Shown piece by piece: positions 336 to 3,923 of a stretch of 64,000 nt of DNA. The DNA is from Acidobacteriaceae bacterium (GTDB lineage: Bacteria; Acidobacteriota; Terriglobia; Terriglobales; Acidobacteriaceae), in NCBI GenBank assembly GCA_003132405.1, contig PKXQ01000150.1, positions 42,584-106,583 of the forward strand. Reading direction: 5' to 3'. Below the pieces are notes generated by a model. The model worked only from the letters and a program-made list of their open reading frames with translations, searched no databases and was not told the origin of the DNA. Within the stretch, counting starts at the first letter, position 1. Each line of letters starts with the position of its first letter. A program made the translations under genes and the position numbers.

Positions 336-2195
336 CTAGTCGTCCCCCGGATCGCCATCACTAAGTGCTGACGTCGTGGTGGCTACGTTGGAAGTTGCAC
401 CCCAGACTACGCTGTCGCCAGTAACGGAGGTCGCTCCCCAGACCACGCTGGTTGCGCCCCATACTACCGAGGTTGCTGAGATTGTGTTAGCGCCCCACAC
501 CACCGAATTTCCCCAGACCACCGAAGTCGCACCCCAAACAACACTGCTGCCGGCGAAATTGGAGTCGGGATTTGTATTGGTGATGGTGACGCTACCGTTT
601 GAGTTAAGGACTGCGGTCGGGGAAAGCGCTAGTCCCGTCGCGAGGTCCGTGCTGCCAAGAGCGGCGTCGACATTCAGATACCCCGCTCCATAAGTGAAGA
701 GGTCATACTCGTTGTTGTAAAGGTTTCCGCGGCTGTCGTGTGAATATGTAAACTGCCCAACGCTTTTCCAGGCAGTTTTCATCAAGCGAGCTTTCACTTG
801 ATCAGGGGTTAGCGAAGGCGTCTGTTGCAGCATAAGCGCTACCGCACCGCTCACGATTGGCGCTGCCATGCTGGTACCGCTCAATTCATAGTACATGGCG
901 GTTCCGGGAGGTGGGGTTCCGGGAGGTGGGGGTCCGGGAGGTGGGGTTCCGGTAACTGGCCCAACTTCATATTGCGGATAGGCCGCATCCAGCGTGCTGC
1001 CCGCAACCCGCAAGGAGACCTGCCGGTTTCCCGGCGCGGTCAAGTCAGGTTTACAAATGTGATCGAGCGTCGTCGGACCTTTGGAACTGTAACTCGCAAT
1101 CTGGTCGTCGGCGCGCGACGGCGTTAGCTCCGTCATGGCCGCTCCCACAGTAATGACAGAGGGATCATTTCCCGGAACCACGATGGTACCGAAGCCGTCC
1201 GTAGGAAGATAACGCCCGTTGTTGCCGGCAGCCGCCACCACCACAATGCCAGCCTGCCATGCGGCTTCCACCGCCTGGTCAACCGGATCGAGGGTGTAGC
1301 TCTCGAACACCGGTCGTCCCAACGACATGTTGATGACGCGGATGTTGTAGGTACTTTGTAGTGCGATCGCTTCTTCGATGGCCGCGATCACTCCGCTATC
1401 CGTGCCCGAACCGTTCTGGTCCAGGACGCGCAGGTTGATAATGTTTACGTTAGGAGCCATACCGGCGTAGGTCGCGGCATAGCCATTGGCTGTGCCGGAA
1501 CTTGAGCCGTTGCCACCGATCAAGCCCGACACGTGCGTTCCGTGCCCGAACTCGTCGGAAGTCGTCGCGTCGCCAGTCACAAAGCTCTGGCTATAGACCA
1601 CTCGGCTGACGCCATTGGCGTTGTTCAGATCAGGGTGCGCTGCGACTCCGCTGTCGATGACCGCTACGCCGACGCCGGTGCCATCGAAACCATACTGCGC
1701 CGCCGCAACATCCGCCTCGACTGCGGTAGCGAACTCTTCGGTGACCGGGTTAGCGGCCATCTTTTGCGCGCGGTCAGGAGTGATGTAGGTGACGTTCGGA
1801 TCTCGCGCCAATTCCGCTAGCATGCTGGCGGGTATGCGCATCGTCACTGCACGGATGCTGTGGAACTGCGACCTAATTGCCGCCCCACGGCCCTGCATGC
1901 TCTTCAAATGTGCGGCAGAAGGCATCTGGCGATGTTGAACGATGATGGTGACCATGCCGTTCGCCTCGACGCGCTGTTGAAGATCGGAGGCAAACTTCGT
2001 GTTGCCCGGCGCCGGCTTCGGGCCAGCGTAAGAAGGAACTGCTGAGAGAGCCAGCAGGACCAGTGCGAGAACTCGGCCCCAGGCAGCACTAAATGCCGGG
2101 GTACTGAGCGGACGGTCTTTGCGTCCGTATGTGACCTGCGATTTATCGCTGTTCTTCATAAGTTTTTGTGTCGACTTTTCCGAAGGACATGTCAT
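336..2195 (-). CDS. Exported S8 (subtilisin-like) serine protease with SVVWG tail
   Basis: Secreted or surface endopeptidase of 619 residues. A hydrophobic stretch at about 41-56 ending SAVPSYAG looks like a signal peptide. An inhibitor-I9-like propeptide (about 65-150) precedes the subtilase domain. The triad is Asp181 (AVIDSG), His218 (FGHGTHVSG) and Ser442 (SGTSMAAP), with the oxyanion Asn in AAAGNNG near 325. Two oddities: a Pro/Gly insert (about 416-433) just before the Ser motif, and six SVVWG units at 550-602 near the C-terminus. The start at 2195 is preferred because GAGGG lies nearby; an internal ATG at 2159 would also keep the signal peptide. The substrate is unknown. Confidence 0.9.
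   Translation of the reverse strand: MTCPSEKSTQKLMKNSDKSQVTYGRKDRPLSTPAFSAAWGRVLALVLLALSAVPSYAGPKPAPGNTKFASDLQQRVEANGMVTIIVQHRQMPSAAHLKSMQGRGAAIRSQFHSIRAVTMRIPASMLAELARDPNVTYITPDRAQKMAANPVTEEFATAVEADVAAAQYGFDGTGVGVAVIDSGVAAHPDLNNANGVSRVVYSQSFVTGDATTSDEFGHGTHVSGLIGGNGSSSGTANGYAATYAGMAPNVNIINLRVLDQNGSGTDSGVIAAIEEAIALQSTYNIRVINMSLGRPVFESYTLDPVDQAVEAAWQAGIVVVAAAGNNGRYLPTDGFGTIVVPGNDPSVITVGAAMTELTPSRADDQIASYSSKGPTTLDHICKPDLTAPGNRQVSLRVAGSTLDAAYPQYEVGPVTGTPPPGPPPPGTPPPGTAMYYELSGTSMAAPIVSGAVALMLQQTPSLTPDQVKARLMKTAWKSVGQFTYSHDSRGNLYNNEYDLFTYGAGYLNVDAALGSTDLATGLALSPTAVLNSNGSVTITNTNPDSNFAGSSVVWGATSVVWGNSVVWGANTISATSVVWGATSVVWGATSVTGDSVVWGATSNVATTTSALSDGDPGDD
390..548 (-). repeat. SVVWG protein repeat at the protease C-terminus
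   Basis: Six SVVWG units occur within about 53 residues, separated by AT, N, ANTISAT, AT and ATSVTGD. The underlying DNA repeats a motif close to accacgctggttgcgcccca on the plus strand. The array follows the catalytic domain and ends about 17 residues before the acidic C-terminus SDGDPGDD. Such Trp-rich tandem units could form a surface-binding or self-assembling tail; that is inference. Confidence 0.85.
897..950 (-). repeat. Pro/Gly-rich in-frame repeat inside the protease domain
   Basis: A short purine-rich tandem repeat (ccgggaggtggggtt and variants, plus strand) encodes TGTPPPGPPPPGTPPPGT within the protease. It lies about ten residues before the catalytic Ser motif GTSMAAP, where typical subtilases have a short surface loop. 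The repeat units are nearly identical, which suggests recent expansion by slippage. Confidence 0.8.
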
Positions 2196-2437: not shown

Positions 2438-3466
2438 CTATGCTCGCGCCGAACTCCCGGCTAGCACGGAGCGTAAAGGCGCGCTGAGTCCGCGCATGAC
2501 GCTCTCAAACTGTCGAAGATCAAGAGATTGAGGTCCGTCAGAGAGGGCCCGCTCAGGGCAGGGATGCACCTCAACAATGAGGCCATCGGCACCGACCGCA
2601 ATCGCAGCCCGCGACACTGGTCCAATCAGACTCTGCTTGCCGGTGCCATGCGAAGGATCGGCCACCACCGGCAGGTGCGAAAGTTCCTTGGCGAGAGCGA
2701 CAGCGGCCAGGTCGAAGGTGTTTCGCATGCCGGTTTCGAATGTCTTGATTCCGCGCTCGCACAGAACGACCTGATCGTTTCCTCCCGAGAGCAGGTACTC
2801 CGCTGCCAGCAACCACTCTTTCACACTGGCGGACGGCCCCCGTTTGAGCAGGATCGGCTTCTTGAGAGTTGCGAGGCGACGCAGCAGGGCGAAGTTCTGC
2901 ATGTTGCGCGCGCCCACCTGGAGCATGTCGGCGTACTCGCAAATCAGATCCACGTCTTCGGTACTCATCACCTCGGTTACTACCGGTAGGCCGGTGAGTT
3001 CGCGCGCTTCGCCTAGAATCTTGAGTGCTTCGATTCCGAGCCCCTGGAATTCATAGGGCGAGGTGCGCGGTTTATAGGCGCCTCCACGCAGCATGGTCGC
3101 ACCGGCGCGCTTCACGCCCTCAGCTGTTTCTAATAGCTGCTCGCGCGACTCGACCGAGCAGGGCCCGGCAATCACGACCACGTCGGCGCCTCCAATCTTG
3201 ACGCCGCCAACCTCGACGATCGACGGTTGCGGGCGCGTTTGACGGCTGACCAGCTTGAAGGGCTGTGCGATGGCGACCACGTTGTCCACGCCGGGCGCGA
3301 CCGATAGCGCCTCGATTTCATGGCGGCGACCGCCGCTGCCGACCGCCGCAACGATGGTTCGCTCGGTGCCGCGCGTGACGTGGGGCTGGAATCCGGCCTC
3401 GCGGATGCGCTGAATGATGTGTTCGATCTGCTGCTCGGTCGCGCTGTCGGACATGTTGACGATCAT
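2438..3466 (-). CDS. aroF: 3-deoxy-7-phosphoheptulonate (DAHP) synthase
   Basis: First enzyme of the shikimate pathway: phosphoenolpyruvate plus erythrose 4-phosphate gives DAHP. The 342-residue protein has a ferredoxin-like N-terminal domain (about 1-70), known in the Thermotoga-type family as the feedback-control module. A class I-beta KDO8P/DAHP synthase barrel follows. Visible motifs are [40 protein letters not shown] and DPSHGTGK. The start at 3466 is chosen because AAAGGA lies 7 bases upstream and the N-terminus [13 protein letters not shown] fits the family; a longer frame would read through the attenuator hairpin. Expression is probably controlled by the upstream leader peptide and terminator. 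Confidence 0.93.
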
Positions 3467-3490
3467 GGTTGGGTCCTTTCTATGTGGTTT

Positions 3491-3524
3491 AAAAAATAAA
3501 AAGCCGCGATCGTGATCGCGGCTT
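3491..3524 (-). terminator. Attenuator terminator upstream of aroF
   Basis: On the minus strand AAGCCGCGATC and GATCGCGGCTT form a perfect 11-base-pair stem with almost no loop (in practice 9-10 pairs and a small loop), followed by TTTATTTTTT. It lies 25 bases before the aroF ATG and after the leader peptide, so it would stop transcription before aroF. Confidence 0.85.
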
Positions 3525-3529
3525 CGGCG

Positions 3530-3574
3530 GAATCTTTGAGCTCTCTCTACTACCCTGGGGATCGGCTCAGATTC
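3530..3574 (-). promoter_or_regulatory. Alternative RNA hairpin between leader peptide and attenuator
   Basis: GAATCTGAGC (3574-3565), within the end of the leader peptide frame, can pair with GCTCAAAGATTC (3541-3530), leaving two A unpaired. In addition AGCCGATC (3567-3560) copies most of the 5' arm of the terminator. It could therefore pair with the 3' arm GATCGCGGCT (two-base bulge), preventing the terminator. A ribosome at the leader stop codon would cover AGCCGATC; one stalled at the aromatic codons would leave it free. The pairing is read from sequence; the mechanism is inferred. Confidence 0.5.
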
Positions 3575-3639
3575 AGCGCCTCCGCCACAAAAGTAAACCA
3601 ATAGTGGCTAAACTGGTGAAAGTTGCTAAATCGAGTCAT
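3550..3639 (-). CDS. Aromatic-amino-acid-rich leader peptide of aroF
   Basis: A 29-codon frame beginning [17 protein letters not shown] lies between a promoter-like -10 and the aroF attenuator. Five of its first 17 residues are Phe, and there is one Tyr and one Trp, the three end products of the pathway that aroF opens. The stop codon TAG (3552-3550) lies just ahead of the terminator stem. This is the layout of ribosome-mediated attenuation as known for pheA, trp and aroF-like operons elsewhere. The ribosome binding site is weak. It is too short for ordinary gene finding. Confidence 0.75.
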
Positions 3640-3674
3640 AAAATTGTTAGACGAGAACCTTGAAACCCTAGCTC

Positions 3675-3705
3675 AGTATAATTGTTCGCGGACGGAGACT
3701 GGTAA
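3675..3705 (-). promoter_or_regulatory. Possible promoter of the aroF leader transcript
   Basis: Minus-strand TATACT (3680-3675) is a good -10 match. A weak -35, TTACCA (3705-3700), is 19 bases away. A transcript starting near 3668 would begin about 30 bases before the leader peptide ATG. It lies just past the pilin stop codon. Confidence 0.4.
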
Positions 3706-3873
3706 TTACTGCCCTAGAGAACTGGCTACACTGGAGAATGCATTATTGGCATTACTCCCGATAAGACGCACTGTACCGATCACCAATACCAGAATGACAG
3801 CTAACATGACGGCATACTCAGCGATATCTTGCCCCTGCTCGTCGCTGCCGATATGACGAAGAAACTCAATCAT
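3706..3873 (-). CDS. Flp/Fap-type (type IVb) pilin
   Basis: A 55-residue protein starting MIEFLRHIGSDEQGQDIAEY. Charged residues and the GQDIAEYAVMLAVI signature lead into one hydrophobic helix (about 21-40), as in Flp pilins, where prepilin peptidase cuts just before the helix and Glu/Tyr are conserved. GGAGG lies 5 bases before the ATG, and a strong promoter sits upstream. The C-terminal half NANNAFSSVASSLGQ also fits the family. No tad/cpa assembly genes are nearby, so it is an orphan copy here. Flp pilins form adhesive pili; which machinery exports this one cannot be told. Confidence 0.85.
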   Translation of the reverse strand: MIEFLRHIGSDEQGQDIAEYAVMLAVILVLVIGTVRLIGSNANNAFSSVASSLGQ

Positions 3874-3923
3874 CAGAACCTCCGGGGCCCCAGCAGAAAA
3901 CTCTGGGACAAACTGTGCAGCTA

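What the first reader, a model, noticed from the sequence alone, without database searches (positions are those of the whole stretch)
3466..3680. Complete attenuation control for aroF: Phe/Tyr/Trp leader peptide, competing hairpins and terminator
A 29-codon frame with five Phe, one Tyr and one Trp in its first 17 residues ends just ahead of a perfect GC-rich terminator that precedes aroF. The octamer AGCCGATC inside the leader copies the terminator's 5' arm and could pair with its 3' arm, so a ribosome stalled on aromatic codons would block termination. Leader attenuation is known for pheA and trp operons; I know of no description for an acidobacterial DAHP synthase. One leader sensing all three end products would be neat for a common-pathway enzyme.
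Basis: partly seen in the sequence, partly recalled or inferred. Interest (0 to 1): 0.78.

Follow-up and report, generated by a model that had tools for sequence, protein, structure and literature searches.

The report
Aromatic leader-peptide attenuator of aroF
Ahead of the gene for the first enzyme of aromatic amino acid synthesis, this bacterium and many relatives carry a tiny gene packed with phenylalanine, tyrosine and tryptophan codons plus a transcription terminator, which very probably lets stalled ribosomes switch the enzyme on when aromatic amino acids run short.

Summary
On the minus strand, 3639-3550 encodes [29 protein letters not shown], followed by an 11-bp terminator (3525-3500) and a DAHP synthase gene, aroF (3466-2438). 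Comparison makes it much stronger: 76 of 87 assessable, distinct upstream regions of related aroF genes hold an aromatic-rich short ORF, and a terminator scores >=25 in 70 of 75 of them against 0 of 33 before DAHP synthase paralogues. Best reading: ribosome-mediated transcription attenuation. The likelier switch is GCCAC:GTGGC (regions 1:2) against region 2 with the terminator arm; partner-swap tests support it in divergent groups, not within the window's own group, and equilibrium folding of the window shows no switch. All three aromatic residues occur in 58 of 75 leaders, so one leader may sense all three end products; this is inferred. A DAHP synthase leader is known in Corynebacterium glutamicum (Phe-Tyr-Phe), so this is a new member of a known kind; I found none described for Acidobacteria. 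A Tyr-rich analogue stands before aroF in a family outside the class.

The parts
3550..3639 (-). Leader peptide ORF, 29 codons plus stop, [29 protein letters not shown]
   Evidence: conserved in relatives
3595..3603 (-). Likely control codons Tyr13-Trp14-Phe15 (TAT TGG TTT)
   Evidence: position between regions 1 and 2; in alignment A1 Phe15 in 16 of 16, Trp14 in 13 of 16, Tyr13 in 12 of 16
3604..3608 (-). Region 1, GCCAC
   Evidence: can pair with 3588-3584; relatives have GCCGC:GCGGC
3584..3588 (-). Region 2, GTGGC, partner of region 1 or of the terminator 5' arm
   Evidence: inferred switch
3565..3574 (-). Region 2 inner part, GAATC T GAGC
   Evidence: can pair with 3541-3538 and 3534-3530; swap test positive in groups B, AB, ABC, weaker in C, not in A
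3530..3541 (-). Region 3 inner part, GCTC AAA GATTC
3515..3525 (-). Terminator 5' arm (region 3), GAAGCCGCGAT
3500..3510 (-). Terminator 3' arm (region 4), ATCGCGGCTTT
   Evidence: terminator covariation in group B, 16 double-changed cells, 0 of 500 shuffles
3490..3499 (-). T-rich tail of the terminator
3474..3480 (-). GAAAGGA, likely ribosome binding site of aroF
   Evidence: sequence; recognised by eye
2438..3466 (-). aroF, DAHP synthase with N-terminal ferredoxin-like domain

Best explanation
A ribosome-mediated transcription attenuator of aroF. Shown by sequence and comparison: a conserved short ORF rich in Phe, Tyr and Trp codons, a conserved intrinsic terminator between it and aroF, and helices that could alternate. 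Inferred: when charged tRNA for an aromatic amino acid is scarce the ribosome stalls at Tyr13-Trp14-Phe15 and covers region 1; region 2 is then free to pair with the segment before and in the terminator's 5' arm, so RNA polymerase reads on into aroF. When aromatic tRNAs are charged, the ribosome runs on to the stop codon, regions 1 and 2 pair behind it, and the terminator forms. Stalling at early Phe codons (4, 7) would leave region 1 free, so Tyr13, Trp14 and Phe10/15 should be the effective sensors.
For: 76 of 87 assessable distinct upstreams carry the aromatic ORF; 71 of 89 have >=5 aromatics in 14 codons against 102 of 3560 shuffles. Terminator score >=25 in 70 of 75 leaders, 8 of 375 shuffles, 0 of 33 paralogue upstreams. 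In group B single-base codon differences are synonymous in 0.42 in frame against 0.25 and 0.31 in the other frames. Own 1:2 pairs beat partner-swapped pairs in group B (0 and 7 of 5000 with two segment choices), C (0 and 19 of 5000) and all groups together (0 of 5000 twice), controls negative; own 2:3a pairs likewise in B and in all (0 of 2000), C 51 of 2000. Where the terminator changes from GCCGCG to CCCAC type the leader changes with it: 9 of 9 CCCAC leaders fit CCCAC arms better, 57 of 61 GCCGCG leaders fit GCCGCG arms better (2 leaders of neither type not counted). In some divergent leaders equilibrium folding switches as predicted, e.g. L110 P(terminator) 0.98 to 0.00 and L026 0.93 to 0.05 on stalling.
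Against: In the window itself equilibrium folding gives the terminator 0.97 in both states; over 72 leaders the terminator arm is as sequestered without a ribosome (mean 0.55) as with a stalled one (0.57), less at the stop (0.38), and some leaders change the wrong way (L057, L029). Within the window's own group the swap tests show nothing (2:3a 345 of 2000; 1:2 2301 and 663 of 5000), nor do column counts for 2:3a, nor is there an excess of synonymous change (0.24 against 0.28 and 0.29). Column counts for 1:2 in group B are negative; 2:3b does not vary within B and says nothing there. One control pairing (region 1 with the terminator 3' arm) is mildly low in group A, 73 of 2000. Single leaders are rarely significant for 2:3 (13 of 72 at p<0.05). 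11 related aroF genes lack the leader. Relatedness of the sequences is not removed by these tests. No expression data; promoter of the window's lineage not found.
Confidence: 0.85

Rival explanations
1. The terminator is a plain terminator of the upstream pilin-like gene, and the aromatic ORF is an accident.
For: A Flp/Fap-like pilin gene lies directly upstream in the same orientation (window 3706-3873; 18.7 bits, below Pfam's cut-off of 32.2); by a motif search a pilin-like frame lies within 600 nt upstream in 18 of 18 group A loci. No promoter of 9 of 12 or better at the tested distances before the leader ATG in group A, 0 of 17.
Against: The aromatic ORF persists in 23 of 58 other leaders in which the pilin motif was not seen and with quite different terminators; 10 of 22 divergent leaders have a good sigma-70 match 6-13 nt before the leader ATG (shuffle rate 0.002).
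Confidence: 0.05
2. Attenuation is real but senses mainly Phe and/or Tyr; Trp codons are incidental.
For: Of 75 leaders 75 have Phe, 70 Tyr, 60 Trp. In C. glutamicum the Phe-Tyr-Phe leader responds to Phe but not Tyr (PMC11802643, passages, reporting Neshat 2014). Of 10 leaders seen in family f36, 9 have no Trp.
Against: Trp is a rare residue (recalled), yet 50 of 75 leaders have all three aromatics within 5 residues and 32 have F, Y, W consecutive in some order; Trp14 is kept in 13 of 16 close relatives.
Confidence: 0.4
3. Translational or reinitiation control: leader translation affects aroF initiation rather than termination.
For: In family f36 most hairpins lack a strong T tail (2 of 11 upstreams score >=25) and are closely followed by the ribosome binding site.
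Against: In the window and most leaders of the class the stem is followed by a T-rich tail, and in the window by a separate ribosome binding site.
Confidence: 0.06

Closest known systems
aroR-aroF leader of Corynebacterium glutamicum (PMC4046766 passages; PMC11802643 passages reporting Neshat et al. 2014, which I did not see)
   Same: Leader peptide before a DAHP synthase gene with aromatic control codons; ribosome-mediated attenuation reported.
   Different: Leader has Phe-Tyr-Phe; responds to Phe, not Tyr; other phylum; no Trp codon is mentioned in the passages. Its sequence was not compared here.
uORFC-13-1 motif, Acholeplasma (PMC8632094, section 26 read)
   Same: uORF upstream of aroF next to a terminator, Phe codon(s).
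   Different: 24 representatives, Acholeplasma and environmental; Phe only named; predicted, not tested.
pheA (pheL), pheST and trp (trpL) leaders of E. coli (PMC11802643 passages; details recalled)
   Same: Leader codons of the end product, attenuation; competing hairpins and terminator (recalled).
   Different: Each senses one amino acid and controls a branch or tRNA synthetase gene, not the common pathway.
ilv leaders: C. glutamicum ilvBNC (PMC11857589 passages), E. coli ilvGMEDA (recalled)
   Same: One leader holding codons of several end products of a shared pathway; the C. glutamicum transcript starts one nucleotide from the leader ATG, as the divergent leaders here may.
   Different: Branched-chain amino acids.

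Membership tests
Ribosome-mediated (leader-peptide) transcription attenuators | Short ORF with codons for the pathway's end products upstream of the structural gene | tested here: met
   promoter of the window lineage unresolved
Ribosome-mediated (leader-peptide) transcription attenuators | Intrinsic terminator between leader ORF and structural gene | tested here: met
   covariation in group B
Ribosome-mediated (leader-peptide) transcription attenuators | Mutually exclusive antiterminator and anti-antiterminator pairings | tested here: inconclusive
   Supported by swap tests in divergent groups and lockstep changes and by 2:3a column counts in group B; not by equilibrium folding or within-group tests for the window, nor by 1:2 column counts in B
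Ribosome-mediated (leader-peptide) transcription attenuators | Leader is translated and stalling changes read-through | not testable with these tools
   needs expression data
Rfam leader families | Match to a family's covariance model | tested here: not met
   no match up to E = 1 in 3300-3900; in nine relatives' loci the only match at gathering score was a group II intron
C. glutamicum aroR leader | Homology of the leader sequence | not tested
   the aroR sequence was not retrieved

The most novel reading that the evidence does not exclude
One leader peptide with a Tyr-Trp-Phe stall site is a single sensor for all three end products of the shikimate pathway, gating its first enzyme across much of a class of Acidobacteriota, while a second acidobacterial lineage evolved a Tyr-specialised version, partly on another DAHP synthase lineage.
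Probability: 0.45. Interest if true: 0.68.

Novelty: new member of a known kind. Interest (0 to 1): 0.5.

Why it matters
[quoted passage not shown] this gives one with a clear target, wide conservation and a testable codon logic. If one leader really reads all three aromatic amino acids, it would do by one RNA what E. coli does with three DAHP synthase isozymes and repressors (recalled), and the natural variation in codon content offers a ready-made series for asking which amino acid is sensed.

Tried and rejected
Pairing of the invariant CGATTT (codons 3-4) with codons 22-24: it is in the window's minimum-energy fold, but the partner changes in relatives while CGATTT does not, so not adopted. 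Thermodynamic switch for the window: tried, negative (stall codons were picked by rule, oddly in L059, L022, L107). Same leader elsewhere in the genome: pattern ATGACNCGATTTA gave one other hit, inside a kinase-like frame, taken as chance. trpE and the prephenate dehydratase gene of the same genome: open frames end 26 and 49 nt before them, which leaves no room for such a leader directly before them; the starts of possible larger operons were not examined, and the leader scan was not run there. First 1:2 swap test used segments overlapping by 3 nt; repeated without overlap. No structure prediction and no covariance model was made.

Rows dropped: of 113 loci whose match lacked the aroF start (L004, L096, L105), 19 duplicates of the same sequence, L032 (assembly gap) and L095 (131 nt upstream only) as not assessable, own-genome paralogues L002 and L003. 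L103 was left out of the 75-leader statistics although it has a leader and hairpin, hence 76. Related aroF genes without leader: L027, L030, L033, L081, L083, L087, L088, L090, L091, L099, L104. For L059 I took the second-ranked ORF (GTG start). Groups A, B, C were set by me from sequence likeness; alignment A2 holds 26 of 34 group B leaders and the test 33 of 34. Tree: 5 loci skipped as unclear (L095, L116, L125, L128, L139), L129 and L134 left out for lack of the start, then 71 of 109 rows used, close ones thinned.

Full report
What is there. The minus strand reads, in order: a pilin-like gene (3873-3706), a 29-codon ORF (3639-3550), an 11-bp hairpin with T-rich tail (3525-3490), a likely ribosome binding site and aroF (3466-2438). 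AroF is a DAHP synthase with a ferredoxin-like N-terminal domain. The genome (5.7 Mb in 158 contigs, about 89% complete) has two further full-length DAHP synthases, 52% and 49% identical. No Rfam family matches the region.

Is it more than chance. By itself moderately: 5 of 3000 shuffles reach seven aromatics in 14 codons. Comparison decides it. From (61 genomes; 80 loci) I had 113 loci; 110 gave an upstream region, 91 of them distinct. Without the two paralogues and two unusable ones, 76 of 87 have an aromatic-rich ORF. I picked the most aromatic ORF per region, so the fair control is the same rule on shuffles: 71 of 89 regions with >=5 aromatics in 14 codons against 102 of 3560 shuffles. Examples: MTRFSTFRLFSRYWFPFAAEVQDRSQSPGQ, MTRFTSFTGQFRYYWFTGVAAAAALAGRSSHP, MHATRFSAGFSYRYWFESSGAGAPCVPA, MVWAYASFWGFTYRYWGFAL. 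A terminator of score >=25 lies before 70 of 75 of these aroF genes, before 0 of 33 paralogues, before 1 of 11 relatives without leader (L030), and in 8 of 375 shuffles; the three leaders for which a first finder saw none show a hairpin by eye.

Anatomy of the switch. In the window's group: region 1 GCCGC (window GCCAC) directly before Tyr-Trp-Phe, region 2 GCGGC (window GTGGC) shortly after, GCCGC in the terminator's 5' arm, GCGGC in its 3' arm; a second pair of segments (GAATC..GAGC with GCTC..GATTC) extends the 2:3 pairing. The window's A-U in place of G-C in 1:2 is one compensatory event. Swap tests, in which each leader's segment is paired with other leaders' partners, favour own partners for 1:2 and 2:3a in groups B, AB and ABC and for 1:2 in C (2:3a in C: 51 of 2000), with the control segments negative apart from one mild value in group A (region 1 with the 3' arm, 73 of 2000); in group A alone, where sequences are very alike, neither pairing shows. 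Column counts: the terminator covaries in group B; 2:3a in B is supported (0 of 500 for percent paired, 7 of 500 for score); 1:2 in B and 2:3a in A are not; 2:3b hardly varies within B. Relatedness of sequences is not removed by these tests. Between groups the terminator changes from GCCGCG to CCCAC type and the leader changes with it, 9 of 9 and 57 of 61; of two leaders of neither type, L031 fits its own arm best and L097 does not.

Coding. The frame is open by selection, so the lack of stops proves little. Single-base codon differences in group B are synonymous in 0.42 in frame against 0.25 and 0.31 in the shifted frames; in group A there is no such excess, 0.24 against 0.28 and 0.29.

What folding says. 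Equilibrium folding supports a clean switch in a few divergent leaders (L110, L026, L031, L024, L053) but not in the window, where the terminator wins in either state, and two change the wrong way; a real switch in the window must rest on the order of folding during transcription. This is the weakest point of the model.

Which amino acid. Of 75 leaders 75 have Phe, 70 Tyr, 60 Trp, 58 all three; 50 have all three within five residues, 32 consecutively. Phe is written TTT in 78% of leader Phe codons against 28% in five genes of the window, and Arg CGA in 38% against 10% (shared ancestry inflates this).

How far it reaches. The leader clusters on the AroF protein tree (7 changes against 23.6 in shuffles, quick tree), in genomes of the window's family and class by kinship code or record title. 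Paralogues have none (0 of 33 with >=5 aromatics). In the Pyrinomonas and some other lineages aroF instead follows a frame ending in a motif like that of prephenate dehydratase (VLGSY or VLGCY; by eye, motif recalled) and no leader was seen. In family f36, outside the class, 10 of 11 upstreams read show, by eye, a different short ORF, mostly Tyr-rich (MNNRFYSYYYYGSYQTDP, MKSMAVRYYRFYYRGYFKTDP; L132 has few aromatics, L121 a GTG start and Trp; L190 is cut short), before a hairpin whose T tail is poor in most. Of the three f36 genes on the tree two belong to another DAHP synthase lineage, which suggests separate origins.

Exceptions. L042 has a 5-nt deletion that shifts the frame but stays open with four Phe; L085 has a stop where others have Trp; L030 keeps a terminator with a leader ORF poor in aromatics.

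Promoters. In 10 of 22 divergent leaders a sigma-70-like promoter (>=9 of 12) ends 6-13 nt before the ATG (shuffles 0.002), so these leader mRNAs may be leaderless or nearly so; 3 of 35 in group B and 0 of 17 in group A; at the comparison distance of 25-35 nt it is 2 of 22, 0 and 0. Leaderless attenuator ORFs are known (PMC11857589, PMC7298713, passages).

Literature. Searches of the held library showed no acidobacterial DAHP synthase leader in their listings; 'leader peptide' + 'attenuation' + 'Acidobacteriota' gave 0 papers, with 'Acidobacteria' 3, of which I read passages in two (neither main text holds 'aroF') and only the listing of the third. Supplementary lists were not searched, and survey papers may hold this site as an unnamed prediction. 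Most subscription papers are not held; Lopatovskaya 2010 and Neshat 2014 were not seen.

Noticed in passing
window 3639-3550, codons 3-4; 64 of 75 leaders: CGATTT (Arg-Phe) near the leader start is invariant in 16 of 16 close relatives and present in the first 45 nt of 64 of 75 leaders, although CGA is a minor Arg codon in five window genes; no pairing explains it.
   Followed up: partly
window 3706-3873 minus strand: Small Flp/Fap-like pilin gene directly upstream of the leader; a pilin-like motif is also upstream in 18 of 18 group A loci.
   Followed up: partly
window 336-2195 minus strand: Subtilase-like protein whose C-terminal part repeats SVVWG many times (family recognised by eye).
   Followed up: no
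L186-L189, L191-L193, L136, L132, L121 upstream regions: Mostly Tyr-rich leader ORFs before DAHP synthase genes in a family outside the class, hairpin close to the ribosome binding site.
   Followed up: partly
L030 upstream of aroF: aroF relative with terminator whose leader ORF (MMILSVVADEVVLEIVRVFAAIYIDSEDTVGM) is rich in Val and Ile rather than aromatics.
   Followed up: no
L028 2609-2705: Group II intron domain match downstream of aroF.
   Followed up: no
L116 upstream of aroF: Tandem repeat giving FGFWLLA repeats in a frame before aroF; probably a repeat, not a leader.
   Followed up: no
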